Shown here: positions 8,939 through 52,058 of the stretch, one piece after another | How positions within the stretch are numbered: the first letter of the stretch is position 1 | Layout: each line of letters begins with the position of its first letter | NCBI RefSeq assembly: GCF_037078405.1 | Contig: NZ_JAYMGZ010000002.1 | Location: 372,001 to 436,000 of the forward strand | Direction of reading: 5' to 3' | DNA length: 64,000 nt | Source of the DNA: Haloarcula sp. DT43 | Lineage (GTDB): Archaea > Halobacteriota > Halobacteria > Halobacteriales > Haloarculaceae | Translations under genes and position numbers: made by a program | Notes under the pieces: generated by a model | Seen by the model: the letters and a program-made list of their open reading frames with translations, nothing else | What the model was told of the DNA's origin: nothing | The model's database searches: none

Positions 8939-8941
8939 GCG

Positions 8942-10867
8942 TTAGCGGAACCTGAAGTAGCCGCCGATGGCCAGGACGGCCACGAGTCCGAGGCCGATAA
9001 TCGCCGTCAGCGGCGAGCCGCCACCGCCGGAACTCGTCACGGAGACCGGCAGCCGGTAGGTGTCCGACACCGGCGTGTCCCCGTCGGGCTCCTCGTACTG
9101 GAAGTCCACCGAGACGGGGTAGTCCTTGGTCATCGCGGCACCGCTTGCGCTGATGCCGAACTCGATGGTCGCGGACTCGCCGGGGTCGAGGCCGGCGACG
9201 TAGGCCTGGTCGTCGGAGACGGAGATGGGGGACTCGGCGAACAGTTTCGCCTCGATGTTGGTCAGTCGCTCGCCGGCGTCGTTGGTGATAGTCACTTCGA
9301 GCGTGCTGGAGCCCCCGACGTCGACGGACGCGTTCGTCGTCTCGATGGTGAACTCGTCGGCGCTCCCGCCGACGTTCTGCTGGATTTCGAGCGTGTCGCT
9401 CTCGCGGCTGTCGCCCTCGCTGTTGCGGTAGTTGGCGACGAAGTCGAACTGCCGCGGGCCGGCGTTGGCGTTGTCCGACACGTCGGCGTCGAAGGAGACG
9501 GTGGCCGACTCGCCGGGTTCGAGGTCGCCGACGGCGTACTGGGTCTCCTTCGGCGAGATGTTGGCGTGGTCGCTCTCCCAGTTCAGGACGACGTTGCGCA
9601 CCGCCTGGTCGCCGGTGTTGGTCAGCGTGGCTTCGAGGGTCCCGTCGTCGCCGGCTTGGAGCGTCGACTCGACGTTCTCGAGTTCGAAGGACTGCTCGGG
9701 CTCGGGCCGGATGCCGAGCGCGATTCCGTCGTCGGCACCGGCGTCGCCCTCGGGGTCCGTGTAGCCGACCGTGGCGGAGAGCGCGTACCCCCTGACGGAC
9801 GCGTCCCCGCTCGCGGACGCTTCGACGCTGATGGTGCGGCTCTCACCGGGTTCCCACGTCCCGATGTACTGCTCGGCGGTCTCGGACCCGCCGAACGTAA
9901 TCTGGCTGCTCTGTGAGCGCAGGGAGACCGTCGCGTCGTTGACAGTCACCGGCCCGTCGTTGTGGAGCGTGACATTGTAGGTTCCCGAGTCGTCGACGGC
10001 GACGTCGCTCTCGACCCCGCGTACGCTGAACGTCTGCTCCGGCTCGGGCGTGATGCCGAGCGAGGACGCGGTGGCGCTCTTGCGAACCCCGTCGGTGTCG
10101 TCGAAGTCCACCTGGAGGTCGAACTGGTACGGCTCGGCCCGGGCATCGCTGCTCGCGCCGACGCGGTAGCGGAGGGTGCGCTGTTCGCCGGGCTCCCAGG
10201 TCTCGATGAACCGGGCGCTGCTGGTGTCGCTCCCGACCGTGAGTTCGGGGTTCGTCGACGACAGCGTCACGGAGGCGTCGCGGGCCGGCTCGTCGCCGGT
10301 GTTCTCGACGGTGACGGCGACCGTACCGGTCGAGTCGACGCGTGCGCCGGAGTCGACGTCCACCACGTCGAAGGCCGCGTCGTCGTCGATTTCGAGTTCG
10401 AGCTCTATCCGCTCGGTCGTGCTCCTCTCGTCGCGCGCGCCGTCGGCTTCGGAAATGTAGCTCGTGTACTCGTACTCGACGATGACGGGGACGGTGTAGC
10501 TGCCGGGGCTCGCGTCGTCCTCGACGCTGATGTCGAAGGAGAGCGGGTCGGTCCGCCCCTCGGGGACGGACCCCACGGCCCGTTTGCTCGTCGTCACCGT
10601 AATCGGGGCGTCGCCGCTGTTGACCTTGACGATGGTCCCGCGGGCGGTCGTCACCTCGCTGTTCTGGACGCCCTGGGTCGAGGACCCGGAGTCGACGGTC
10701 CCGCTGTTGACGAGCACGATGTCGAGGGTCGTTTCTTCGCCGGGTGCGACGGTGTCATCGACGAACGTCGCGTCGAAGTCCGGGCTCCCGGTCACGGCGG
10801 CAAGCGCCGTGCCGGACGCCATGAGCAATGCGACAACAGTCAGCGTCAGCAGTGTTCGTGGTTTCAT
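8942..10867 (-). CDS. COG1361-like secreted/surface protein with tandem beta-sandwich repeats
   Basis: Predicted 641-aa exported protein: signal peptide 'MKPRTLLTLTVVALLMASGT', four to five tandem domains of about 110-120 aa, then a single C-terminal helix 'PLTAIIGLGLVAVLAIGG' with a short basic tail. Each domain ends in a phrase like 'WEPGE.RT' or 'L.PGESAT' and contains 'V.NTGD' or 'LHNDGP', typical of CARDB/NEW3-like adhesive folds in S-layer-associated proteins. I chose the ATG at 10867 because it begins the signal peptide; in-frame upstream starts (10888, TTG at 11011) only add non-signal sequence. It is co-transcribed with the RND exporter and is probably its extracellular partner. Confidence 0.82.
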   Translation of the reverse strand: MKPRTLLTLTVVALLMASGTALAAVTGSPDFDATFVDDTVAPGEETTLDIVLVNSGTVDSGSSTQGVQNSEVTTARGTIVKVNSGDAPITVTTSKRAVGSVPEGRTDPLSFDISVEDDASPGSYTVPVIVEYEYTSYISEADGARDERSTTERIELELEIDDDAAFDVVDVDSGARVDSTGTVAVTVENTGDEPARDASVTLSSTNPELTVGSDTSSARFIETWEPGEQRTLRYRVGASSDARAEPYQFDLQVDFDDTDGVRKSATASSLGITPEPEQTFSVRGVESDVAVDDSGTYNVTLHNDGPVTVNDATVSLRSQSSQITFGGSETAEQYIGTWEPGESRTISVEASASGDASVRGYALSATVGYTDPEGDAGADDGIALGIRPEPEQSFELENVESTLQAGDDGTLEATLTNTGDQAVRNVVLNWESDHANISPKETQYAVGDLEPGESATVSFDADVSDNANAGPRQFDFVANYRNSEGDSRESDTLEIQQNVGGSADEFTIETTNASVDVGGSSTLEVTITNDAGERLTNIEAKLFAESPISVSDDQAYVAGLDPGESATIEFGISASGAAMTKDYPVSVDFQYEEPDGDTPVSDTYRLPVSVTSSGGGGSPLTAIIGLGLVAVLAIGGYFRFR

Positions 10868-10985
10868 ACGTAGGGACACTTCGGACATTCCATGGGTCGT
10901 TTCTGTTCGGAACGGATGCTGTGACAGAGCGCTTGGGTACCACCCCACATTCCTCTGCGGGGACGCCCGCCCGAACCGTGTACAT

Positions 10986-11003
10986 CGAACGAACGTTCGG
11001 TCG
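10986..11003. promoter_or_regulatory. TetR operator candidate O1
   Basis: The 18-base sequence cgaacgaacgttcggtcg is an inverted repeat with a single mismatched pair. It shares 15 of 18 bases with the operator at 11050-11067. It lies just downstream of the place where a minus-strand transcript from the AT box at 11037-11046 would start, so binding here would block the exporter operon. Confidence 0.65.
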
Positions 11004-11036
11004 CCTATCAACGTTGTGGTTCGGTGACAGTGGGAA

Positions 11037-11046
11037 GGTATTTATC
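11037..11046. promoter_or_regulatory. TATA box between the two operators
   Basis: The bases ggtatttatc are centred about 28 bases before the regulator's ATG at 11070. Read as gataaatacc on the minus strand, the same element could also serve the exporter operon with a leader of about 140 bases. I see no better minus-strand TATA nearer to 10867. Confidence 0.55.
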
Positions 11047-11048
11047 GA

Positions 11049-11068
11049 CCGACCGAATATTCGGTCGG
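11049..11068. promoter_or_regulatory. TetR operator candidate O2 (perfect 20-bp palindrome)
   Basis: The sequence ccgaccgaatattcggtcgg is perfectly self-complementary and ends one base before the regulator's ATG. It therefore covers the transcription start expected from the TATA box at 11037-11046. The site is well placed for autorepression by the TetR protein. Confidence 0.75.
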
Positions 11069-11069
11069 G

Positions 11070-11690
11070 ATGAGTGATGGAATTCCGTTCGCCGGGGAGC
11101 CGGAGGACTCCCACGAGGCGATAATGCGAGCCACGTTCCGGGCGCTCCGGGAATACGGGTACGCCGGACTTTCGATACAGCGAATCGCGGACGAGGCCGA
11201 CCTCAGCAAATCGACGTTCTACCACCATTTCGACGGGAAAGAGGACCTCTTGCTGTCGTTTCAGGAGTTCATTCTCACGGAGTTCAACCGCATCTTTCAG
11301 CTCGAATCGACCGGCGACCCCGAACAGGACATCAAGACGTTCGTCAGCCTGATTCTCGACGACTTCACCGACTGCGTCGAGACGCCGGAGAAGAACGCGG
11401 TGCTCGGTTCCTACGTCGAGATGCGCGCACAGGCGGTCCAGAACCCGGACTTCCGGGAGAAGTTCACCGAGACGGACAAACTGTTCGCCCGGCAGTTCGC
11501 ACAGATAATCGAGGACGGCATCGAACAGGGGAAGTTCGCCGACGTCGACCCCGAGGAGGTCTCGCAGTTCATGATAATGGTCCTCGACGGCGTGATTCTG
11601 CAGAACGCGACCAGAAACGACAACCCCGTCGCCACGGTCCGTGACACCATCGACGAGTACATCGACGAGACGCTGATTCTCGACGCCTAG
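11070..11690 (+). CDS. TetR/AcrR family transcriptional regulator
   Basis: Dimeric ligand-responsive repressor, 206 aa. The N-terminal helix-turn-helix is clear: 'ALREYGYAGLSIQRIADEAD' followed by 'LSKSTFYHHFDGKEDLL' (residues about 26-65). The remaining all-helical domain should bind the inducer and form the dimer. The gene faces the surface-protein/RND exporter operon, and two similar palindromes lie in the shared spacer, 64 bases apart centre to centre (about six helical turns). That strongly suggests control of both units. Its stop TAG is shared with the convergent HalX gene through a CTAG at 11687-11690. Confidence 0.92.
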   Translation: MSDGIPFAGEPEDSHEAIMRATFRALREYGYAGLSIQRIADEADLSKSTFYHHFDGKEDLLLSFQEFILTEFNRIFQLESTGDPEQDIKTFVSLILDDFTDCVETPEKNAVLGSYVEMRAQAVQNPDFREKFTETDKLFARQFAQIIEDGIEQGKFADVDPEEVSQFMIMVLDGVILQNATRNDNPVATVRDTIDEYIDETLILDA

Positions 11691-12259
11691 TTCCGGCTGA
11701 TGGACTGGTGGGTCCGTTTCAGCTCCTCGAAGTCGTCGGTTTCGGCCTGCAGGACCCACTCCAGTTTCTTGGCCCGCTCTTTCAGTTCGGTGTACTCCGT
11801 GCTCCCCTCCAGCTGTGACGTTGATTTCTCCCGTTCCAGCACGGAGAGCTTCGAGGAGATGCGGAAGTACTCGTCGAGCCGGTCGTCCCCGTCGGCCCTG
11901 TCGAGGTGCTGGTCGAGCGTCGACAGGAGCGTCGACTGGTCGACCGGCTTCTGGAGGTAGTCGTCGAAGGGCATCTCCAGGATGTTCAGGTCCGCGCCGA
12001 CCGCCGTCAGCATGATGACGGTGCCGTCGTACCCCCGCTCGCGCAACCGCGAGAGCACCTCGTCCCCGTGTACGTCCGGCATTCGGCGGTCGAGCAACAC
12101 GGCGTCGAACTCCGGCCCGGCGGTGTCGAGCGCCGCCTGGCCGCTGTAGGCGACAGCGGTCTCGTACCGGTCGCCGAGTTTCAGCGCCTGGGTGTCGGCG
12201 ACGTCGTGTTCGTCGTCGACGACGAGCACTCGCGGCGGACCGCCTGTAGTTCTGGACAC
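11687..12259 (-). CDS. HalX-domain response regulator
   Basis: A 190-aa protein with an N-terminal receiver domain ('VLVVDDEHDVAD', phospho-acceptor Asp in 'AVLLDRRMPDVHGDEVL', Lys in 'YLQKPVD') and a C-terminal HalX region of about 65 residues rich in Leu, Glu and Lys ('FRISSKLSVLEREKS', 'RAKKLEWVLQAE'). HalX proteins are haloarchaeal orphan regulators of unknown output. I chose the GTG at 12259 because a TATA-like agacatatac lies about 30 bases upstream and the upstream extension is not protein-like. A kinase partner is not encoded next to it; a PAS-like membrane protein is divergent. Confidence 0.85.
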   Translation of the reverse strand: MSRTTGGPPRVLVVDDEHDVADTQALKLGDRYETAVAYSGQAALDTAGPEFDAVLLDRRMPDVHGDEVLSRLRERGYDGTVIMLTAVGADLNILEMPFDDYLQKPVDQSTLLSTLDQHLDRADGDDRLDEYFRISSKLSVLEREKSTSQLEGSTEYTELKERAKKLEWVLQAETDDFEELKRTHQSISRN

Positions 12260-12350
12260 AGTCGTAGCGAGTGGTAGGGCTGGTAGCTGTATATGTCTTG
12301 CCAGCGGCGTGTTCTCGAAAAGCGTTAACCCATGGCCTCCGGAGTGTCCC

Positions 12351-12959
12351 ATGATGAGCAAGTCGTCGACGGACGCAGGCCGACGCCGTCTCGGGAGCCT
12401 CGCCGCCATCCTCGGGTGGATTGGGGCCGGAGCGGTCGTGCTGGCGACCGTCGCGCTGCTAGTACAGTCGACGCTGTCGCTGGGGCTGTCCGAACAGGTC
12501 ACCGTCGGCCTCGGACTGGCGCTCGGCGGTGGGGTCGGCGGCGTCTCCTACCTCCTGTTTACCGACTCGCCGGGCGAGTCGGCCGACGAGACGGTGTCGG
12601 TGTCGGCAGACGCCGAGGCCACGCCGGAGCCACAGCCGGTCGACCTCTTCGACGGCCATCCGGACCCGGTGCTGTACTTCGCCGACGACGGCCACGGTCC
12701 GGTCGTGCGCGCGGCCAACGAGGCGTTCGGCACCACGTTCGACGTGCCCGCCGACCGGCTCACCGGGACGGCGCTCTCCGAGGCCCTGCTCGTGGCCGGC
12801 ATCGACGAAGTGGACGCGGAGTCGGTCAACACGGCCGACCTCGACGTCGTGGCGCTCTCGACGGCCCACGACGAACCGACACGGTTCCGGCTGCGGACGG
12901 CCGGCGTCCCCTCGACCGGCTACCTCCTGTTGACGCCGCTTGGGACGGCGGGCGACTGA
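12351..12959 (+). CDS. Membrane protein with degenerate PAS-like domain
   Basis: About 202 aa. Two transmembrane helices ('LAAILGWIGAGAVVLATVAL' and the Gly-rich 'VTVGLGLALGGGVGGVSYLL', residues about 14-65) are followed by an acidic linker and a roughly 110-residue cytoplasmic domain. That domain contains 'GHPDPVLYFADDGHGPVVRA' and 'NEAFGTTFDVPADRLTG', which resemble the start of a PAS fold. There is no kinase or output domain. The start is one of two adjacent ATGs (12351 or 12354). It is divergent from the HalX regulator and may act as a sensor for it, but that is inference from position. Confidence 0.7.
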   Translation: MMSKSSTDAGRRRLGSLAAILGWIGAGAVVLATVALLVQSTLSLGLSEQVTVGLGLALGGGVGGVSYLLFTDSPGESADETVSVSADAEATPEPQPVDLFDGHPDPVLYFADDGHGPVVRAANEAFGTTFDVPADRLTGTALSEALLVAGIDEVDAESVNTADLDVVALSTAHDEPTRFRLRTAGVPSTGYLLLTPLGTAGD

Positions 12960-12980
12960 GCGGTCGGCGGCGGAACGGAA

Positions 12981-12990
12981 CTTTAAAGAT
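12981..12990 (+). promoter_or_regulatory. TATA box for the small membrane protein at 13018
   Basis: The bases ctttaaagat contain the strong TTTAAA core, centred about 33 bases before the ATG. Confidence 0.6.
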
Positions 12991-13017
12991 TCCATCACGG
13001 CGAAATCCTGGATAGGA

Positions 13018-13305
13018 ATGCTCGCGTCACCGCTGCAACTCATCGATAGTTTCCTGCTGAACTACACCATCGGTGATGTCCTGCTGCTCGGCTTTGTCGG
13101 GGGGCTCGTCGCCATTCTCCCACAACGGTCGCTCCGAATGCTCGGACTGCACACGATTGCGCTGGGCGCGCTGCTCGTCATCACGCCGGCGTCGGCGATG
13201 GAACCGAACAGCGCGAGCGTCCTCGCGTCGTCGTTCCAGTACAAACTGTTCGGCCTGGTGTTGCTCGTCCTCGCACCGGTGCTGTACGCCGTCGGTCGGC
13301 GTTAG
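13018..13305 (+). CDS. Small three-helix membrane protein
   Basis: A 95-aa protein with three predicted membrane helices ('GDVLLLGFVGGLVAIL', 'GLHTIALGALLVITPAS', 'LFGLVLLVLAPVLYAVG'). I do not recognise the family. The ATG is supported by a TTTAAA promoter box upstream. The stop overlaps the NAD kinase stop on the opposite strand (TTAG, 13302-13305). Confidence 0.72.
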   Translation: MLASPLQLIDSFLLNYTIGDVLLLGFVGGLVAILPQRSLRMLGLHTIALGALLVITPASAMEPNSASVLASSFQYKLFGLVLLVLAPVLYAVGRR

Positions 13306-14153
13306 GCGAGCTTGTCCAGTGCGGTGAAAAAGTCCAGGGGCGGACCGGCGAGCCGGACCGGTTCGCTCGCACGCGAGAGCGCGATTCGCTCCGGCGGAAC
13401 CACGTCTTTTCGGACGCGACCGTCGCTGACGACGACGCCGCTGTCGGCGTCCGCGAGTTCGATGACGATTTCGCTGTCGACGTCGACGACTAGCGGCGGC
13501 GTCCCGGCCTCGTCCGCCATCGTCGTGACGATGAGGCCGGACACGTCGGGGTGGACGAGCGGCCCCCGCTCGCTGAGGTTGTACGCCGTCGACCCCGTGG
13601 GGGTGGCCACGAGCACGCCGTCGGCGTGGCCGGACGCGTACAGCGAGCCGTCGACGTACACGTCGAGGGTCGCCCCGCCGCCGTGACCGCGGCGCTCGCC
13701 CTGGACGACGACCTCGTTCAGCGCCGGCGACAGCTCCCAGTCATCGCCGCTGGCCTGGAGCCGCGGCTTGGCCCGGGTCCGGGCGCTGCCGGTCTTCTGG
13801 ATGTGCTCGACCTCCGCGACGACCGTCTCGACGGCCTCCTCGGGCGCGATAGCGTTCAGAAAGCCGACTTCGCCGAGATTGACCCCCAGTATCGGTGTCG
13901 ACCCCGCCCCCCGGGCCGCGTACAGAAAGGTCCCGTCGCCGCCGATGCTCACGACCAGGTCGCAGGCGGACATCTCCTCGACCGGGGCCGACTCGGGCAC
14001 GGCGGCCTCCCACGCGTCGTGGTCGCCGAGCGCGCCGGCGGTCGTCTCGTCGACGACGACGGCCGCGGAGGTGGCGCGCAGTCGGTCACACAGTGTGCTC
14101 GCAAGCGACATGGCCCGGTCGTTGTCCCGCTGCGCGACGATGCCGACAGTCAT
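13302..14153 (-). CDS. nadK: NAD kinase
   Basis: ATP-NAD kinase, 283 aa, making NADP+ from NAD+. The N-terminus 'MTVGIVAQRDNDRA' is followed by the catalytic 'VSIGGDGTFLYAARGAG' (GGDG motif near residue 88). Next come 'PILGVNLGEVGFLN', the 'ALNEVVV' substrate strand, and the 'SGHADGVLVATPTGSTAYNL' motif, which carries the NAD-binding Asp and the GSTAY signature. Length and motif order match archaeal NadK. The start is the ATG at 14153; longer in-frame extensions upstream are not protein-like. NADP demand in the window includes isocitrate dehydrogenase and HMG-CoA reductase. Confidence 0.93.
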   Translation of the reverse strand: MTVGIVAQRDNDRAMSLASTLCDRLRATSAAVVVDETTAGALGDHDAWEAAVPESAPVEEMSACDLVVSIGGDGTFLYAARGAGSTPILGVNLGEVGFLNAIAPEEAVETVVAEVEHIQKTGSARTRAKPRLQASGDDWELSPALNEVVVQGERRGHGGGATLDVYVDGSLYASGHADGVLVATPTGSTAYNLSERGPLVHPDVSGLIVTTMADEAGTPPLVVDVDSEIVIELADADSGVVVSDGRVRKDVVPPERIALSRASEPVRLAGPPLDFFTALDKLA

Positions 14154-14261
14154 TGCCGGACGTTCCGGCCGGCCGTACATAAACCCTCTACGACGGCACT
14201 TATATCCGTCCCGACGCGTATCCCCTTCCATGGGCCGTTCGTGTGGCCGGTGGTCGTGCGT

Positions 14262-15311
14262 ATGAGCGGGGACGACGGGTCCGACGACGACTGGTTCGAA
14301 AGCGCGCTTGACGACGAGGACGCCGAACCGACGGAGACGCCGTCCGAGGGCGACTCCGACGGGACGGCGTCCGCGGATGCCGGACCGTTCGAGACCGGGA
14401 ACGACGAGGACAGCAGTCCCTTCGACGGAGGCGACGACAGCCCCTTCGAGGACGGGACCGAAGACAGCCCTTTCGACGGCGAGGGAGCCGACGCCGACGA
14501 CGGGGCTGGCGGCGACGGCGGCCTCTTTGACGACGACTTCGCCACCGCCTTTCAGTCCGCCGGCAGCGGCGACGGCGACGGCGACGGCGACGGTTTCGAC
14601 GAGGAGTTCGAGTCCGACATCCCGCGTGTCGACATCGGCATCGAGGGGCTCGACCAGATGATTCAGGGCGGGATTCCCGAACGCCATCTCATCGTCACCA
14701 TCGGCTCGGCCGGGACCGGGAAGACGACGTTCGGACTGCAGTTCCTCCAGCACGGGCTGGAGAACGGCGAGAACGCGGTGTTTCTCACCCTCGAACAGTC
14801 CCACGACGCGATACTGGACACCGCCAGTGACCGCGACTGGGGATTCGAGGAGTACGAGGAGGCGGGCCAGCTAGCCGTCGTCGACCTCGACCCGGTCGAG
14901 ATGGCCAACAGCCTCGACAACATCCGCGGGGAGCTCCCGGACCTCATCGAGCGGTTCGACGCCGACCGACTGGTGCTCGACTCCGTCTCCCTGCTGGAGA
15001 TGATGTACGACGACCAGTCCCGGCGGCGCACCGAGGTGTTCGATTTCACCCGGTCGCTGAAACAGGCCGGCGTGACGACGATGCTCGTCTCCGAGGCCAG
15101 CGAGAGCAACCCCTTCGCCTCCAGACACGGCATCATCGAGTACCTGACCGACGCCGTGTTCATCCTCCAGTACGTCCGGTCGGACACCGGCGAGACGCGA
15201 CTCGCCGTCGAGATACAGAAGATACGGAACGCGAACCACTCGCGGGAGACGAAACCCTACGAGATAACGAACGACGGCATCTCGGTCTATCAGCAGGCCA
15301 ACATCTTCTAG
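14262..15311 (+). CDS. KaiC-like RecA-superfamily ATPase with acidic N-terminal tail
   Basis: A 349-aa protein. Residues 1 to about 115 are extremely acidic and low in complexity, with three repeats of the type 'DSPF(D/E)-GG' (around residues 50-75). From about 122 a single KaiC domain follows: 'IPRVDIGIEGLDQMIQGGIP', Walker A 'GSAGTGKTTFGLQF', the catalytic Glu pair region 'VFLTLEQS', Walker B 'DRLVLDSVSLLE', and a C-terminal 'VEIQKIRNANHSRE' loop. Single-domain KaiC relatives in archaea include signalling and motility (ArlH-like) ATPases; the role here is unknown. An in-frame GTG at 14241 is an alternative start. A TATA-like cttatatc lies near 14203. Confidence 0.83.
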   Translation: MSGDDGSDDDWFESALDDEDAEPTETPSEGDSDGTASADAGPFETGNDEDSSPFDGGDDSPFEDGTEDSPFDGEGADADDGAGGDGGLFDDDFATAFQSAGSGDGDGDGDGFDEEFESDIPRVDIGIEGLDQMIQGGIPERHLIVTIGSAGTGKTTFGLQFLQHGLENGENAVFLTLEQSHDAILDTASDRDWGFEEYEEAGQLAVVDLDPVEMANSLDNIRGELPDLIERFDADRLVLDSVSLLEMMYDDQSRRRTEVFDFTRSLKQAGVTTMLVSEASESNPFASRHGIIEYLTDAVFILQYVRSDTGETRLAVEIQKIRNANHSRETKPYEITNDGISVYQQANIF

Positions 15312-46003: not shown

Positions 46004-47512
46004 ATGCTCGACCAGTTCCGGAAGCGGCTCCGCGCGGCGGCCAGGCGGCTCCGGCGGGTCGAGCGCCGCGAACTCCAGGACTTCAGGCGCTGGGCAGAGG
46101 TGACCGAGAACCTCGTTCACATCTCCATGCTGGTGTTCGTCCCGCTGGCTATCGTGCTGGTGACGACGCTGGCGAACGTCGTTCCGCAACTGAGCTTCCT
46201 GCTTTTCCCGCCGCTCGCGGCGGGGACGTACACGCTGTTCGTCGACCCGACGAGCAAGTACTCCGACCCGAAGCGGTTCGTCGCGGGGCTGACCATCGGC
46301 GCGGTCTGTGGACTGGTCGCGCTCGCCGTCTCGAACAGTTACCTCCCGGTCCCGGGCGGCCAGTTCGGCGTCAACGCCCTCGGTGCCGGGCTAGCCGTCT
46401 TCGCCACCGGCGTGGTCACCTGGCCGCTGGACATCGAGGAGCCGTCGTCGTACTCGACCGCTCTGCTGGCGCTGCTCGTGGAACCGAACCAGCGGGCGGC
46501 GTTCGTCGCCAGCGTCTTCGTTGCCAGTTCGCTCGTGGCGGCCATCTTCGTCGTCTGGCGCGAGGAGTTCTACGAGCGGCGGGCGACGTACCTCTACGAG
46601 TCGATGTCCGGCGACGACCACGTCCTCGTCCCGATGCGCGGCGAGTCGGCGGGCCGGACGGCGATGCTGGGCGCGCGCCTCGCGGCCGCCCACGAGGCCG
46701 GCAAAGTCGTCCTGCTGGACATGGTCTCCGCCGGCGACGCCGCCGAGCACTCGCTCACGCGGGAGACGATACAGCTGGACATCCGGTCCGAGAACGGGGC
46801 CGAGCCGCCGTCGGCCGAGACCCGTCCGGTCGGCGACGGCGGCGACCCGGCGACCGCCCCGGCGTCGCCCGACCGGACCGACCTCGAAGCGGAAATCGAC
46901 TGGCTGGAGACCCACGCCGCACGCATCGAGACGCGGACGGGCGTCTCCTGTCAGGTCGTCGTCGCGAGCGACGACGGGTCGCCGGCCAAGACGACGCTAC
47001 AGACCGCGGCCGAGACCAACTGCGACCTCATAGTCGCGCCCTACGAGAGCCGCCACGGCGCGCTGACGCCGTACCTCCAGCGGCTGTTCCGCAGCGAGAG
47101 CGACGTTGTCGTCCACCGGTCGGTGAGCGACCGGACCCGCTGGAAGCAGGTCCTGGTCCCCGTGCGGTCCGTCAGCGACGTGGCCCACAACATGGTCGAC
47201 TTCGCCACGCGGCTGGCCGGCCGGAGCGGGCGGGTGGCCGTCGCCACCTGCATCGGCTCCCGCGGCGACCGCCGCCGGGCCGAGGAGATGCTCGCGGACC
47301 TCATCGAACCGTACGAGGGGGCCTTCGAGACGCGGGTCCCGCGGACGGACATCCAGGCGTTCCTCGCCGACACCGCCCCGCAGTACGACCTGGTGATTAT
47401 CGGGGCGAGCCGCGACCGGAGCAAGGCGTCGCGGTTCATTTCGCCGCCGACCTTCGAGCGGCTGGAAGACGTCGAGACGGACGTGGCCATCGTCGACCGC
47501 GGCCGGGCCTAG
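46004..47512 (+). CDS. HPP-family membrane protein fused to UspA-like domains
   Basis: A 502-aa fusion. Residues 40 to about 190 form an HPP-type membrane domain of about five helices ('LVHISMLVFVPLAIVLVTTL', 'LLFPPLAAGTYTLFVDPTSK', 'FGVNALGAGLAVFATGVVTW', 'AALLALLVEP'-like end). The soluble remainder has two UspA-like halves ('HVLVPMRGESAGRTAMLGAR' and 'KQVLVPVRSVSDVAHNMVDF'), the second ending 'YDLVIIGASRDRSKASRFIS'. A fusion of this kind suggests a nucleotide-sensing regulated membrane protein. It heads a cluster with a K+ channel and TrkA_C proteins; its stop is shared with the channel gene via CTAG. Confidence 0.83.
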   Translation: MLDQFRKRLRAAARRLRRVERRELQDFRRWAEVTENLVHISMLVFVPLAIVLVTTLANVVPQLSFLLFPPLAAGTYTLFVDPTSKYSDPKRFVAGLTIGAVCGLVALAVSNSYLPVPGGQFGVNALGAGLAVFATGVVTWPLDIEEPSSYSTALLALLVEPNQRAAFVASVFVASSLVAAIFVVWREEFYERRATYLYESMSGDDHVLVPMRGESAGRTAMLGARLAAAHEAGKVVLLDMVSAGDAAEHSLTRETIQLDIRSENGAEPPSAETRPVGDGGDPATAPASPDRTDLEAEIDWLETHAARIETRTGVSCQVVVASDDGSPAKTTLQTAAETNCDLIVAPYESRHGALTPYLQRLFRSESDVVVHRSVSDRTRWKQVLVPVRSVSDVAHNMVDFATRLAGRSGRVAVATCIGSRGDRRRAEEMLADLIEPYEGAFETRVPRTDIQAFLADTAPQYDLVIIGASRDRSKASRFISPPTFERLEDVETDVAIVDRGRA

Positions 47513-48717
47513 ATGTCCGCGTCCTCCTCGTCTCTCACGTCGAGCAGGTGGTCGGCGACGTTCTCCATCCCCTCCCGACCCAGCGCGGACTGGACGATGA
47601 GGTGCCCGCCGAGCACCGCCGGACTGATGACGGTGTCGGCCCCTGCCCGGCGGAGCTTCTCGACGTTCTCGCGGTCGGTCGCCGCGGCGACGATGTTGAC
47701 CTCCGGGTTGAGCGTCTGTGCCGTCAGTATCGCCAGCGCGTCCTGGGCGTCGTTGTTCGTCGCCGCGACGACCGCCGTGGCGTCCTCGATTCCGGCCCGC
47801 AAGAGCGGGTCCTCGTCGCTCGGGTCGGCGGTCAGCACGGCGATGTCCCGTTGCTGGAGTTGCGTGGCCGTCTCCGTGTCCGGGGTGATGACCACGAACT
47901 CTATCGCGCCAGTCAGTTCGTCGATAATCGGTTCCGTCAGGTCGCCGTGGCCGAGCACCAGCACGTGGTTCTCGAGCAGGTCCAGTTGTGCGTCAGTCAT
48001 GTTTCCGAGTGCCTCCGAAAGCCGCTTCTCGATTGCCGGCCCCAGCAGCGACCCTAGGGCGATGGCGAAACTGGCCGTCCCGAGGACGACCACCGACATG
48101 CCGAACAGTTTCGCCTGCTGGCTCTGTGGGGTCATGTCGCCGTACCCGACGGTACTGGCCGTCACGAGCGTGTAGTAGAACGCGTCGGTCGCCGTCGAGA
48201 GGTTGGCGAACTCGTCCCGGAGCGCGTACGAGCCGGCGGTCCCGTACATGAGCGAGCCTATCAGCGCCGCCCCGGCCGCCAGTTGCGCCGTCGAGAGGTC
48301 TATCGGCCGGTCGAACCGCCGCCGGTTCACCAGCATCGTCGGGAGCGATACCAGCGAGAGGACGACGAGCGGGACCGAAACCGCCGAACTCGGCACGACG
48401 CCGACGAACGGAATCGTCACTGCGGAGCTCTGTACCAGCCCCTGTATCGCCGCCACGGGGAGCAAGACGACGGTCGCGTACCACGCGATCCGCAGGCGGC
48501 GACGGAGCCCGACGACGCTGACCAGCAGCGTAAACCCCGTGAGCGCGCCGGTGAATCCGGCGGTCCGCTGGATGCTCGGCGGGATGAAGTCCCCGAGCGG
48601 CCCGCTGATGGACACGGCGCTGATGTTGACCACTCCGGTGACGAACGACAGCACCGCCACTATCACCGGCAGGATGATGGTCGCCCGCGCCCCGAGCCAG
48701 TCCCGTGGTCTGTCCAT
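47509..48717 (-). CDS. Six-helix potassium channel with RCK_N (TrkA_N) domain and no RCK_C
   Basis: A 402-aa voltage-gated-like K+ channel. Five helices precede the pore ('FYYTLVTASTVGYGDMTPQS' with the selectivity filter TVGYGD), then the last helix 'LFGMSVVVLGTASFAIALGS'. The cytoplasmic RCK_N domain begins 'NHVLVLGHGDLTEPIIDEL' and has 'DTETATQLQQRDIAVLTADP' and 'AVVAATNNDAQDALAILTAQ'. The protein ends shortly after 'DTVISPAVLGGHLIVQSALG', so the usual C-terminal TrkA_C/RCK_C domain is missing. The start at 48717 has the TATA-like catttacac 29 bases upstream. It is divergent from two TrkA_C membrane proteins. Confidence 0.88.
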   Translation of the reverse strand: MDRPRDWLGARATIILPVIVAVLSFVTGVVNISAVSISGPLGDFIPPSIQRTAGFTGALTGFTLLVSVVGLRRRLRIAWYATVVLLPVAAIQGLVQSSAVTIPFVGVVPSSAVSVPLVVLSLVSLPTMLVNRRRFDRPIDLSTAQLAAGAALIGSLMYGTAGSYALRDEFANLSTATDAFYYTLVTASTVGYGDMTPQSQQAKLFGMSVVVLGTASFAIALGSLLGPAIEKRLSEALGNMTDAQLDLLENHVLVLGHGDLTEPIIDELTGAIEFVVITPDTETATQLQQRDIAVLTADPSDEDPLLRAGIEDATAVVAATNNDAQDALAILTAQTLNPEVNIVAAATDRENVEKLRRAGADTVISPAVLGGHLIVQSALGREGMENVADHLLDVRDEEDADI

Positions 48718-48741
48718 ACCCATCCAGATTACAGCGCCCGG

Positions 48742-48780
48742 TGTAAATGTACTGTCCGCGGGCCGGAAGCGATTTACTAC
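48742..48780. promoter_or_regulatory. Divergent promoter pair of the potassium cluster
   Basis: The minus-strand TATA-like catttacac (48742-48750) lies 29 bases before the channel ATG at 48717. The plus-strand gcgatttacta (around 48769-48779) lies 27 bases before the ATG at 48801. The two promoters are back to back in an 83-base spacer, so coordinated expression is likely. Confidence 0.55.
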
Positions 48781-48800
48781 CGGACACGCAGGATGGGGAC

Positions 48801-50024
48801 ATGGCGTCGCTCCCGATTGAGGTATTGATGGGGATTTATCTGGGGTTGTTGGTGGGGGTAATACCGGCGCTCGTGTCGTGGGCGCTGGGGTTCAGTTTCA
48901 AGTACTTTACCGGCATCACCGTGCCCGGGTTCGGTGTCGTCGTGCTGGCAATCGCGCTGGCCGGCGTCAGCGGCGGGCTCATGTCGCTGGCGGACAAGTC
49001 GATAACGCAGGCCCCCAACGCCGAGCGGATAATCACTGCCATCATCCTCGTCGGGATGGTGTCGCTGTACGCCCACAGCAAGGGGGACAAGCTCGGGGCG
49101 GAGTTCCCGAAGCGGCTCTCGCTGAAGGGGCTACGCGAGAAGAAGCTCTCGGCCGACGTGGTCGAGTTCGTCGGCGGCCGCGACGAGGTCCGCATCCGCG
49201 TCGTCGGCGACGTGGCCGACATGGAGGGGTATCCCCCGCTGTCAGAGCCACTCCGGGCCGAGATACGAACCGAGGAGTGGCGCTTCCCGGCGGACCTCCG
49301 CATCGGCGAACTCGAACACCGCATGGAGGAGCGGCTGAAATCGGAGTTCGACCTCGGCGACGCCGCCGTCTCGATAGACGAACAGGGGCGGGCGACGGTC
49401 GTCGCTGCGCCGCCGTTTTCCGGGCTGTCGAAGCGCGTCGGCGACAACCGCCACGCCGTCTCGGTCGAGGCGCTGTTGCCGACCGGCCTGGCCCGCAACG
49501 ACGAGGTGACGGTGCTGACTGAGGACGCGCAGGTTCGCGGGACCGTCGTCAGTGCCCGGTCGGCGTCGGCGGACGACGAGACGGCCGCCGAGACGCCCAC
49601 GCCGCCCGAGGTCGACGACGAGGCGTCCCCGGCACCGGTCCAGGCACCGACGACCGATGGCGGCGAGGGCCGGCTCACGGTCGCCGTGACCCGGACCGAC
49701 GTCCAGCCGCTCCTGCGGTCGGCCCAGCCGAAGGTCGTGGTCGAGCCCCGCGGGACACATCGGGAGTACGAACTCGTCTCTCTGCTCCGGCGGGCCGGCA
49801 ACCGGTTCCGGCGGCTGACCGTCCGGGCCGACGGCCCCCTCGACGGGACGACGCTCAGGGACGCCCACGTCCGCGAGACCCACGGCGTCGCCATCGTCGC
49901 CATCCGGACGCCGGACGGCTGGCAGGTCGCGCCGCGGGGTGACGCGGCCGTCGAGGGCGGCGACGAACTGTACGCGATTGGCCGCCGCGCCGACCTCGAG
50001 GCCTTCGAGGAGGCGGTCGCATGA
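48801..50024 (+). CDS. Three-helix membrane protein with C-terminal TrkA_C domain (first paralogue)
   Basis: A 407-aa protein. Three helices ('MGIYLGLLVGVIPALVSWAL', 'GFGVVVLAIALAGVSGGLMS', 'IITAIILVGMVSLYAHSKGD') are followed by a beta-rich region (about 100-265), a Pro/Glu-rich linker (about 270-300), a second beta region and a C-terminal TrkA_C/RCK_C domain. The TrkA_C part reads 'DGTTLRDAHVRETHGVAIVA' and 'IRTPDGWQVAPRGDAAVEGG' followed by DELYAIG. There is no pore loop and no RCK_N domain. The gene overlaps the next, similarly built gene by ATGA (50021-50024). Together they could supply the regulatory part that the divergent channel lacks. Confidence 0.82.
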   Translation: MASLPIEVLMGIYLGLLVGVIPALVSWALGFSFKYFTGITVPGFGVVVLAIALAGVSGGLMSLADKSITQAPNAERIITAIILVGMVSLYAHSKGDKLGAEFPKRLSLKGLREKKLSADVVEFVGGRDEVRIRVVGDVADMEGYPPLSEPLRAEIRTEEWRFPADLRIGELEHRMEERLKSEFDLGDAAVSIDEQGRATVVAAPPFSGLSKRVGDNRHAVSVEALLPTGLARNDEVTVLTEDAQVRGTVVSARSASADDETAAETPTPPEVDDEASPAPVQAPTTDGGEGRLTVAVTRTDVQPLLRSAQPKVVVEPRGTHREYELVSLLRRAGNRFRRLTVRADGPLDGTTLRDAHVRETHGVAIVAIRTPDGWQVAPRGDAAVEGGDELYAIGRRADLEAFEEAVA

Positions 50025-51691
50025 CGCTCGCCGGACCGCTGGCACAGGTCGGTGCGAACCTGCAACTGGGGCTGCTATCGCAGGTGGTGGTCGAGGGCGT
50101 GGCGTGGCTCCTCGCCATCGCCGTCCTCGCCGCGACGCCGGCGGGCGCTATCGCCGTCTTCTACCGCTGGTACGTCCGGGAGCGGATTCAGACCGGGCTC
50201 GCGCTCCTGTTCGGGCTGACCGCCGTCGTCCTCGTCATCGGCGCGACGACCGCGCTCAGCGAGGTCATCCTCGGCGACGAGGACGTGCTGGCGGCCGGCG
50301 CGGTCCTGCTGAACCTCGCGGCCTTTTTCGCCGGCGGGGCCGGGGCCTACGGGGGAATGCGTATCGGGGACCGGCTGGGCGTCGACCTCTTCGCCGCGAC
50401 CGGCGGCCGGAACATCGACGCCGACGTGAGCGAAATCGTCCAGACCGTCGGCCGGGTTACCTCGGTCCGCCTCCCCGAGGACGTCGACGACATCGTCGGC
50501 TACGACCCGATGCCGGAGGAGACGAAGGAGACCCTCGCGGACCGGCGGTTCCTCTTCCCGCGGCGGCTGACGAAAGACGAACTCAGGGACCGGCTGGTCG
50601 CCCGGCTCAAGACCGACTACGGCGTCGGCCACGTGGACGTCGAACTGGCCGATGACGGCACCGTCAACTACCTCGCGGTCGGCTCGCGGGCGGCCGGTAT
50701 CGGCCCGACACTGCCGCCCTCGACGAACGCCGTCGCCATCCGCGCCGACCCGGCCCACGCCGCGAGCGCCGGGGACCTCGTCCAGGTCTGGGAGCGAGCG
50801 CCGGCCAGGCGCGTGCTCACCGGCGAACTCCGGGGAGTCGCCGACGACGTGGTGACGGTCGCCATCGACGCCGCAGACACGCCGAAACTCGACCCCCAGA
50901 CCGAGTACAAACTGGTCACGCTCCCGGTACAGGACCGCTCGGACCGGGAGTTCGCCTCGCTGCTCCGGGCGGCCGACGAGACGATGGGCACGGCCACCGT
51001 CGGGCCGGGGAGCGCGCTCGACGGCGCGCCCGTCGGGAGCCTGGCGGTCGCGGTGGTCGCAATCACCCGCGACGACGCGGCACCGGAGACGATTCCGTCC
51101 CGCGACCGGGTGCTGGCGGCCGGCGACACCATCTACGCCATCGCCACCCCGGACGCGCTCCGGCGACTGGAGCAAGCCACGGCGGGGACCGGCGACCCGC
51201 CCGCGACGGCCGCCCCGGCGGACGAGGCAGACGCCGACGGCGAGGATGTCGCGTCGGCGTCGGCCTCCAGTGCTGGGGCCGAACCCGACAGCGACGCCGC
51301 GGAGACACCGGCCGGGACCGACGACGGGAACGCCGACGCTATCGACGACGGGACGGCCGATACCGCCGCCGACACGGACCAGCCCGACACCGGCGCGGAC
51401 GAATCGACGGCCGAACCCGCCGACGGGCCGACGGACGAATCCGACGACGCCCCGGACGAGGACCCGCTGTCGGCGCTCTCGGACGCCGACGCGGAGGAGC
51501 CCGACGACCTCTCGGCTGACGAGCCGTTCGACGAGCCGGCGGCGGACGACGACACCGTCGAGGTGTGGGACCCGGAGGAGCGAATCGGCGAGGCGGACGG
51601 CGCCACCGACGACCCGACTGCCCCCGACCCGCCGGCCGACGAGGGCGGCGACACATCGAACGCCGACGAGGACCCGGAGAAACAGAGCTGA
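50021..51691 (+). CDS. Three-helix membrane protein with TrkA_C domain and long acidic tail (second paralogue)
   Basis: A 556-aa protein with the same plan as its upstream neighbour: three helices ('EGVAWLLAIAVLAATPAGAI', 'TGLALLFGLTAVVLVIGATT', 'AAGAVLLNLAAFFAGGAGAY'), beta-rich middle, and a TrkA_C-like domain ('LDGAPVGSLAVAVVAITRDD' and 'IPSRDRVLAAGDTIYAIATP', about residues 325-390). The last 160 or so residues are a disordered Asp/Glu/Ala/Thr-rich tail with no hydrophobic segment, as often seen in cytoplasmic haloarchaeal proteins. Translation is coupled to the upstream gene by ATGA. Gene duplication within the operon is likely. Confidence 0.8.
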   Translation: MTLAGPLAQVGANLQLGLLSQVVVEGVAWLLAIAVLAATPAGAIAVFYRWYVRERIQTGLALLFGLTAVVLVIGATTALSEVILGDEDVLAAGAVLLNLAAFFAGGAGAYGGMRIGDRLGVDLFAATGGRNIDADVSEIVQTVGRVTSVRLPEDVDDIVGYDPMPEETKETLADRRFLFPRRLTKDELRDRLVARLKTDYGVGHVDVELADDGTVNYLAVGSRAAGIGPTLPPSTNAVAIRADPAHAASAGDLVQVWERAPARRVLTGELRGVADDVVTVAIDAADTPKLDPQTEYKLVTLPVQDRSDREFASLLRAADETMGTATVGPGSALDGAPVGSLAVAVVAITRDDAAPETIPSRDRVLAAGDTIYAIATPDALRRLEQATAGTGDPPATAAPADEADADGEDVASASASSAGAEPDSDAAETPAGTDDGNADAIDDGTADTAADTDQPDTGADESTAEPADGPTDESDDAPDEDPLSALSDADAEEPDDLSADEPFDEPAADDDTVEVWDPEERIGEADGATDDPTAPDPPADEGGDTSNADEDPEKQS

Positions 51692-51779: not shown

Positions 51780-52058
51780 ATGGAGTGGAAACTGTTCGCA
51801 CACCTCCGGGACGCGGCCGACGGCCAGTCGGTCAGCGTCGATGTCGAGGGCGACGCCACGGTCGAAGCGGCGCTCGATGCGCTGCTCGCGGCGCGACCGG
51901 CGCTCGCCGAGGAGGTGCTCGACGAAAACGAGGAACTGGCCGACCACATCCGTGTGCTCGTCGACGGTGAAGACCCGTTCTCCGCCGGCGACGGGCTGGC
52001 GACGCCGGTCGACGAGGGGACGGAACTCGCGCTGTTTCCGCCGGTCAGCGGCGGGTGA
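51780..52058 (+). CDS. samp1: Ubiquitin-like small archaeal modifier protein SAMP1 (MoaD-like)
   Basis: A 92-aa beta-grasp protein beginning 'MEWKLFAHLRDAADGQSVSV' and ending 'ELALFPPVSGG', i.e. with the exposed C-terminal Gly-Gly required for adenylation by the E1-like UbaA and isopeptide attachment to protein lysines. The beginning and end closely match Haloferax SAMP1, which is also needed for molybdopterin synthase activity as the MoaD-like sulfur carrier. The start ATG at 51780 is fixed by family length. It follows the TrkA_C pair with its own promoter. Confidence 0.94.
   Translation: MEWKLFAHLRDAADGQSVSVDVEGDATVEAALDALLAARPALAEEVLDENEELADHIRVLVDGEDPFSAGDGLATPVDEGTELALFPPVSGG

What the first reader, a model, noticed from the sequence alone, without database searches (positions are those of the whole stretch)
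46004..51691. K+ channel regulatory domains split across divergent genes
Seen: a 6-TM channel with TVGYGD filter has RCK_N but ends before RCK_C. Back to back with it, two translationally coupled paralogues each have three TM helices and a TrkA_C domain but no RCK_N and no pore. An HPP-Usp fusion shares the channel's stop. Known: RCK_N and RCK_C normally sit in one polypeptide or one soluble TrkA. Inference: the TrkA_C membrane proteins may assemble with the channel as separate ligand-sensing subunits, or work with the HPP-Usp protein as a new ion-homeostasis module.
Basis: partly seen in the sequence, partly recalled or inferred. Interest (0 to 1): 0.62.

Follow-up and report, generated by a model that had tools for sequence, protein, structure and literature searches.

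The report
Haloarchaeal membrane pair beside complete K+ channel
Next to an ordinary Kch-type potassium channel, salt-loving archaea carry a pair of linked genes for unusual membrane proteins that always travel together; they are probably a sensor or transport unit of their own rather than the missing half of the channel.

Summary
The genes are as described: HPP-Usp, a 6-TM TVGYGD channel with RCK_N only, and two overlapping 3-TM/TrkA_C genes (here TCA and TCB), in a Haloarcula genome. The 'split regulatory domain' reading is not supported. The channel belongs to the Kch kind, which lacks RCK_C anyway; its unlinked paralogue in the same genome also lacks it. It stays intact after at least 9 inferred independent losses of TCA-TCB. 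What is notable is the pair. TCA was found in about 83% of 212 Halobacteria genomes, TCB follows it in 55 of 55 loci, and TCB is missing whenever TCA is. The channel is linked in 48 of 55 loci, but so is the unrelated SAMP1 gene on the other side in 42 of 55 (difference not significant), so adjacency is weak evidence of a complex. In TCA the most conserved parts are TM1-TM2 and a cytoplasmic domain without a detected relative; RCK_C is less conserved and is degenerate in a divergent pair unlinked to the channel. I favour a heteromeric membrane unit with a ligand-tuned cytoplasmic module, probably in K+/osmotic homeostasis. One member, HVO_2617, was already reported as a 3-TM-TrkA composite gene (PMC5992828).

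The parts
46004..47512 (+). HPP-Usp membrane protein (alternative start GTG 45992); TM_HPP about 46127-46558, Usp about 46817-47122
   Evidence: Pfam TM_HPP 1.6e-8, Usp 3.5e-7; found in 31 of 55 TCA loci, close in 28
47509..48723 (-). Kch-type 6-TM K+ channel, 404 aa, with RCK_N and no RCK_C
   Evidence: Ion_trans_2 2.1e-14, TrkA_N 2.5e-28; NCBIfam Kch PRK10537 E 1.9e-59, 201.7 bits, below its cut-off of 425; MthK 1lnq 3.8e-27, E. coli Kch RCK 1id1 4.7e-13
48136..48153 (-). selectivity filter TVGYGD
   Evidence: invariant in all 85 aligned orthologues, including 19 from genomes without an intact TCA-TCB pair
47620..47964 (-). RCK_N (TrkA_N) domain of the channel
   Evidence: Pfam TrkA_N residues 254-368
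48801..50024 (+). TCA: 407-aa 3-TM protein with C-terminal RCK_C (conserved start 48801; longer ORF from 48747)
   Evidence: TrkA_C 1.2e-13; 177 of 212 Halobacteria genomes match
48816..49007 (+). TCA TM1-TM2, the most conserved part of TCA (invariant G-x-Y-x-G and P in TM1)
   Evidence: mean column entropy 0.99 and 0.80 bits against 1.68 for RCK_C; column counts; helices in model
49185..49409 (+). TCA cytoplasmic domain D1 (mixed alpha/beta; conserved D-x-EGYPPL motif)
   Evidence: predicted elements; 23 of 86 columns at least 90% conserved; no sequence match in Pfam or PDB profile search outside RCK_C
49812..50015 (+). TCA RCK_C (TrkA_C) domain
   Evidence: Pfam; Foldseek to MthK, KtrA and KhtT RCK_C
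50021..51691 (+). TCB: 556-aa 3-TM paralogue, overlapping TCA by ATGA; RCK_C about 50996-51172; acidic tail from about 51188
   Evidence: TrkA_C 2.5e-6; beside TCA in 55 of 55 loci
51780..52058 (+). SAMP1-like ubiquitin-fold gene: synteny control, not part of the system
   Evidence: ThiS family 7e-11; linked to TCA in 42 of 55 loci

Best explanation
The channel is a complete Kch-type K+ channel that needs no partner RCK_C. TCA and TCB are a haloarchaeal family encoded as an obligate pair. They most likely form a hetero-oligomer in the membrane: TCA's strongly conserved TM1-TM2 is the functional membrane core, TCB is a more weakly constrained partner, and each sends down a cytoplasmic stack (domain D1, a beta-rich domain, a C-terminal RCK_C) that binds a ligand and changes the state of the membrane part. 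The likely role is an optional unit in K+/osmotic homeostasis, working beside the channel and the other K+ systems rather than as part of the channel. Shown by sequence: complete channel, pair obligacy, repeated loss without the channel, conservation pattern. Inferred: hetero-oligomer, ligand control, K+ role.
For: TCB adjoins TCA in 55/55 loci and is absent in all 20 tested genomes without TCA, apart from one fragment. Divergent pairs TCA2-TCB2 in other genomes are also always two adjacent genes. The channel orthologue persists without an intact pair in 19 sampled loci, needing at least 9-12 changes on the channel tree, with TVGYGD intact. The unlinked paralogous channel is also RCK_N-only. 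TCA TM1-TM2 are the most conserved segments; RCK_C is less conserved in both proteins. TCA2-TCB2 has a degenerate RCK_C in TCA2 and no channel nearby in 9 of 9 loci. Relation to K+: TrkA_C itself; usual neighbour a K+ channel; in one genome the pair sits beside a KhtT/KhtU-type antiporter and a double-RCK protein.
Against: No direct evidence of function, complex formation or ligand. The structure models have modest confidence (pLDDT 70.6 and 73.0, pTM 0.29), so no pore can be argued from them. TM conservation in TCA could equally reflect binding to the channel or another partner. The K+ link rests on domain resemblance and neighbours; TrkA_C also occurs in non-K+ proteins. Linkage to the channel is retained in most genomes, and in one small-genome genus the channel, TCA and TCB run in the same direction.
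Confidence: 0.5

Rival explanations
1. TCA and TCB are accessory subunits of the neighbouring channel: their RCK_C domains sense a ligand and modulate the channel through TM or RCK contacts, as a non-essential add-on.
For: Channel found in 48 of 55 TCA loci. Every tested genome with TCA holds the channel. In two genomes of one small-genome genus the orientation has changed but the three genes stay adjacent in one direction. KhtT, KtrA and TrkA are precedents for RCK subunits in trans (general knowledge; KtrA and TrkA in PMC4565861).
Against: The linkage is no stronger than to SAMP1 (Fisher p = 0.22). The channel is retained intact after repeated loss of the pair. In sampled genomes where channel and pair are unlinked both persist, and in five of those seven loci the pair stays with SAMP1 instead. 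TCA2-TCB2 is not near a channel.
Confidence: 0.22
2. The RCK_N-only channel and the RCK_C proteins are two halves of one split gating ring.
For: The channel stops after RCK_N; both neighbours carry RCK_C without RCK_N.
Against: RCK_N-only channels are a known kind: the channel's best NCBIfam match is Kch, its unlinked paralogue is RCK_N-only, and a review treats the C-terminal RCK sub-domain as an extra of BKca, MthK and TrkA, with E. coli Kch working in another arrangement (PMC4565861). Channels persist without the pair.
Confidence: 0.05
3. The RCK_C domains of TCA/TCB are receptors for c-di-AMP, making the pair an osmotic effector of the archaeal DacZ signal.
For: c-di-AMP is essential and osmoregulatory in Haloferax volcanii and its targets were not named in the passages read (PMC6741144). 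Foldseek matches include c-di-AMP-bound KhtT and BusR. TCA keeps the arginine of the KtrA motif in 55 of 68 sequences.
Against: The asparagine of the KtrA-type motif (motif recalled from memory, placed by the 4xtt alignment) is Ala/Thr/Val in TCA and never Asn among the residues counted. TCB lacks the arginine region. The KhtT matches beyond RCK_C have rmsd above 10 A.
Confidence: 0.1
4. There is no functional link: an old conserved stretch of chromosome (uridine phosphorylase, HPP-Usp, channel, TCA-TCB, SAMP1) holds unrelated genes that stay together by vertical inheritance.
For: SAMP1 (42/55) and uridine phosphorylase (31/55) are also conserved neighbours. Where TCA-TCB is missing, the channel commonly abuts SAMP1.
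Against: TCA-TCB are linked without exception. Rearranged genomes (L105, L106) keep channel and pair adjacent in a new orientation. One relocated pair sits beside other K+ genes.
Confidence: 0.25

Closest known systems
E. coli Kch (PRK10537; RCK structure 1id1)
   Same: 6-TM K+ channel with RCK_N and no RCK_C; best NCBIfam match of the window channel (E 1.9e-59)
   Different: Scores 201.7 bits against the family cut-off of 425; haloarchaeal lineage; usually beside TCA-TCB
Haloarchaeal composite family 1329 / Haloferax volcanii HVO_2617 (PMC5992828)
   Same: 403 aa, three-pass N-terminal membrane region and C-terminal TrkA domain, conserved in haloarchaea, suggested role in K+ uptake; SAMP1 is HVO_2619 (PMC4500146), which fits the order seen here
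   Different: That passage does not mention the obligate pairing with a paralogue, the channel link, the losses, or the conservation pattern
KhtT (RCK_C subunit of the KhtTU K+/H+ antiporter)
   Same: RCK_C on a separate polypeptide that acts on a transporter in trans; Foldseek match to the TCA/TCB models
   Different: KhtT is soluble and small (about 160-170 aa); TCA/TCB are membrane proteins with extra domains
MthK / KtrA RCK_C
   Same: RCK_C fold matched by sequence profile and by structure
   Different: There RCK_C follows RCK_N in one chain; TCA/TCB have none
Archaeal PhoU-like/TrkA_C proteins of about 400 aa
   Same: Carry TrkA_C and are the main matches outside Halobacteria
   Different: Soluble, repeated helical (PhoU-like, read by eye) plus TrkA_C layout, no TM region; match only over TrkA_C

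Membership tests
Kch-type K+ channel | six TM helices with TVGYGD-type filter | tested here: met
   Ion_trans_2 2.1e-14; TVGYGD in 85 of 85 orthologues; TM count from hydropathy only
Kch-type K+ channel | RCK_N without RCK_C at the C-terminus | tested here: met
   TrkA_N only; paralogue the same
Kch-type K+ channel | score above the curated PRK10537 equivalog cut-off | tested here: not met
   201.7 against 425 bits: filed as Kch-like, not as the E. coli equivalog
RCK channel split into two polypeptides | RCK_C partner present wherever the RCK_N channel is | tested here: not met
   Channel retained without an intact TCA-TCB pair in 19 sampled loci
RCK channel split into two polypeptides | physical assembly of channel with RCK_C proteins | not testable with these tools
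KhtT-type RCK_C subunit | RCK_C on a separate polypeptide, no RCK_N | tested here: met
KhtT-type RCK_C subunit | soluble subunit encoded beside a CPA2 antiporter | tested here: not met
   TCA/TCB have TM segments; an antiporter was seen beside the pair only in L071; neighbours of the other loci were not all annotated
c-di-AMP-binding RCK_C | KtrA-type motif with conserved Asp, Arg and Asn (motif from memory) | tested here: not met
   Arg 55/68, Asn position Ala 42/Thr 13/Val 6 of 68; other binding modes not excluded
Composite family 1329 (HVO_2617) | three-pass membrane N-terminus plus C-terminal TrkA domain, about 400 aa, haloarchaeal | tested here: met
   direct sequence comparison with HVO_2617 not run

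The most novel reading that the evidence does not exclude
TCA-TCB is a new kind of hetero-oligomeric membrane conductance or transporter, not a regulator of another channel: TCA's conserved TM1-TM2 lines the permeation path and the cytoplasmic D1/beta-domain/RCK_C stack gates it, giving salt-in archaea an extra ligand-gated osmotic valve.
Probability: 0.2. Interest if true: 0.7.

Novelty: new variant of a known kind. Interest (0 to 1): 0.36.

Why it matters
Haloarchaea live with molar K+ inside the cell, yet how K+ flux is controlled is little known. A pair present in about 83% of Halobacteria genomes, always encoded together and dispensable to the neighbouring channel, is a tractable target: HVO_2617 is the published Haloferax volcanii member and that organism has genetics. 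The result also shows that conserved adjacency in this region is a weak guide, because the SAMP1 and uridine phosphorylase genes are conserved in the same stretch.

Tried and rejected
Split gating ring: rejected as an obligate arrangement. HPP-Usp as a fixed module member: present in 31/55 loci only. c-di-AMP receptor by motif: canonical motif not met. Relatives of TCA/TCB outside Halobacteria: the matches read were PhoU-like/TrkA_C or Kef-type proteins matched over TrkA_C alone. Structural relatives for the TM region, D1 or the beta domain: none beyond RCK_C; KhtT matches longer than RCK_C have rmsd above 10 A and are not trusted. HPP-Usp has no PDB relative. Paper searches found no study of the pair; HVO_2617 is mentioned once. 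The third fold-search job (viral library) was not used, since the queries are cellular proteins.

Full report
WHAT IS THERE. The window lies in a Haloarcula genome (G000:C2:372001-436000; nearest loci are Haloarcula species). HPP-Usp runs 45992/46004-47512 (+). The channel runs 47509-48723 (-), 404 aa, with Ion_trans_2 and RCK_N and no RCK_C. TCA runs from the conserved ATG at 48801 (ORF from 48747) to 50024 (+) and TCB 50021-51691 (+), each with three hydrophobic segments and a C-terminal TrkA_C, without RCK_N or pore. TCA and TCB overlap by ATGA; the palindrome CTAG gives both the HPP-Usp and channel stop codons, an overlap of 4 nt also seen in 12 other loci. Channel and TCA start codons are 77 nt apart.

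THE CHANNEL IS NOT HALF A CHANNEL. Its best NCBIfam match is the E. coli Kch family (E 1.9e-59; 201.7 bits, below the cut-off of 425), and it matches the Kch RCK structure 1id1 (4.7e-13) and MthK up to the end of RCK_N. A review lists the C-terminal RCK sub-domain as an extra found in BKca, MthK and TrkA (PMC4565861). The paralogous channel elsewhere in the same genome (L107, G000:C3), with no TCA or TCB in its 15-kb stretch, also ends after RCK_N. So the missing RCK_C is a property of this channel type.

CO-OCCURRENCE. An alignment of TCA found it in 177 of 212 Halobacteria genomes and 60 of 68 genera. At least two of these hits are not intact pairs: G135 is a 66-residue fragment and G137 matches over TrkA_C only. 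I took 55 loci from 54 genomes, mostly one per genus, and scored every ORF. TCB adjoins TCA in 55 of 55. The channel is in 48 of 55 (46 within 700 nt), SAMP1 in 42, HPP-Usp in 31 (28 close), uridine phosphorylase in 31. Channel and SAMP1 do not differ significantly (48/55 against 42/55, Fisher p = 0.22; 11 loci keep only the channel, 5 only SAMP1). SAMP1 counts are lower bounds, because short ORFs can be missed. The linkage of channel and pair is therefore real but near the synteny baseline of this region.

LOSS OF THE PAIR. Of 20 genomes without a TCA hit, 17 keep a channel match at E of 3e-147 or better, and none has TCB except a fragment in G072. In the channel loci of genomes without an intact pair (L079-L097, which include G135 and G137), SAMP1 often follows the channel directly (L081, L085-L090), and fragments of TCA or TCB remain in L089 and L090. 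On a tree of 80 channels the label 'pair absent' needs 12 changes, at least 9 by starred branches (quick tree with several weak branches, so counts are approximate). All 19 of these channels keep TVGYGD. The channel does not depend on the pair.

REARRANGEMENTS. In seven sampled TCA loci the channel is not nearby (L030, L031, L032, L041, L052, L071, L075); every one of those genomes was searched and has the channel elsewhere; L041 is a second pair in a genome with a linked one. In five of the seven the pair stays with SAMP1. In L071 the pair lies beside a KhtU-like antiporter, a KhtT-like RCK_C protein and a double-RCK protein. In G001 and G007 channel, TCA and TCB run in one direction (L105, L106), a changed orientation with adjacency kept. 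A divergent pair (TCA2-TCB2) in several other genomes has no channel within its 15-18 kb locus in 9 of 9 loci (L125 is the canonical type), and RCK_C of TCA2 is degenerate in the two read in full.

WHICH PARTS ARE CONSERVED. Across 68 sequences each, mean column entropy (bits) in TCA is 0.99 (TM1), 0.80 (TM2), 1.34 (TM3), 1.23 (D1), 1.74 (beta domain), 1.68 (RCK_C); in TCB it is 1.88, 1.69, 1.97, 1.32, 1.40, 1.87. In TCA the membrane helices, with an invariant G-x-Y-x-G and proline in TM1, are the core; in TCB it is D1. This does not fit the idea that RCK_C is what the proteins exist to supply. The RCK_C of TCA does not carry the KtrA-type c-di-AMP motif (Asn position mostly Ala; motif recalled from memory).

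STRUCTURE. AlphaFold2 models from 27 window and the search for related loci sequences are of modest confidence (pLDDT 70.6 and 73.0, pTM 0.29). Both show a three-helix membrane region, a mixed alpha/beta domain, a beta-rich domain and RCK_C. Against the PDB the trusted matches are to RCK_C of MthK, KtrA, KhtT and BusR, as in the profile search. Domain arrangement and pores cannot be judged from these models. No complex prediction was possible.

LITERATURE. HVO_2617 (403 aa, three-pass, TrkA C-terminus; family 1329) was reported as a conserved haloarchaeal composite gene with a suggested K+ uptake role (PMC5992828). SAMP1 is HVO_2619 (PMC4500146), consistent with the same order in Haloferax volcanii; I did not read that genome. 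No study of the pair was found in the open library.

CONCLUSION. Observation confirmed; split-channel interpretation not supported; accessory role on the channel possible but unproven. The most likely reading is an independent, obligate TCA-TCB membrane unit with a ligand-responsive cytoplasmic module, probably in K+/osmotic homeostasis (0.5). Whether it transports, gates or only senses is open.

Noticed in passing
window 51780-52058 (+): SAMP1-like ThiS-family gene follows TCB and is conserved there in 42 of 55 loci; served as synteny control.
   Followed up: yes
L008:7302-11153, L009:7302-9569; window 51188-51688: TCB has a variable acidic tail, in some species very long with many copies of a motif like SFADLKDEFESGEADW (L008 TCB is 1283 aa).
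   Followed up: no
L071 (G033) 7016-15201: TCA-TCB pair relocated beside a KhtT-like and KhtU-like K+/H+ antiporter pair, a double-RCK protein and an amino-acid permease with Usp domains.
   Followed up: partly
L115, L116, L119-L124, L126-L128: Divergent TCA2-TCB2 pair, unlinked to the channel; TCA2 has a degenerate RCK_C in the two read in full.
   Followed up: partly
L011:4990-10085: Halorientalis salina has two TCA-TCB pairs in tandem.
   Followed up: no
L089, L090: Fragments of TCA/TCB next to an intact channel, i.e. gene loss in progress.
   Followed up: partly
L107 (G000:C3:337407-338522): Second Kch-like RCK_N-only channel in the same genome, with no TCA or TCB in its 15-kb stretch.
   Followed up: yes
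window 47509-47512: CTAG palindrome used as the stop codon of both convergent genes; a 4-nt overlap of this kind is seen in 13 loci in all, in several genera.
   Followed up: partly
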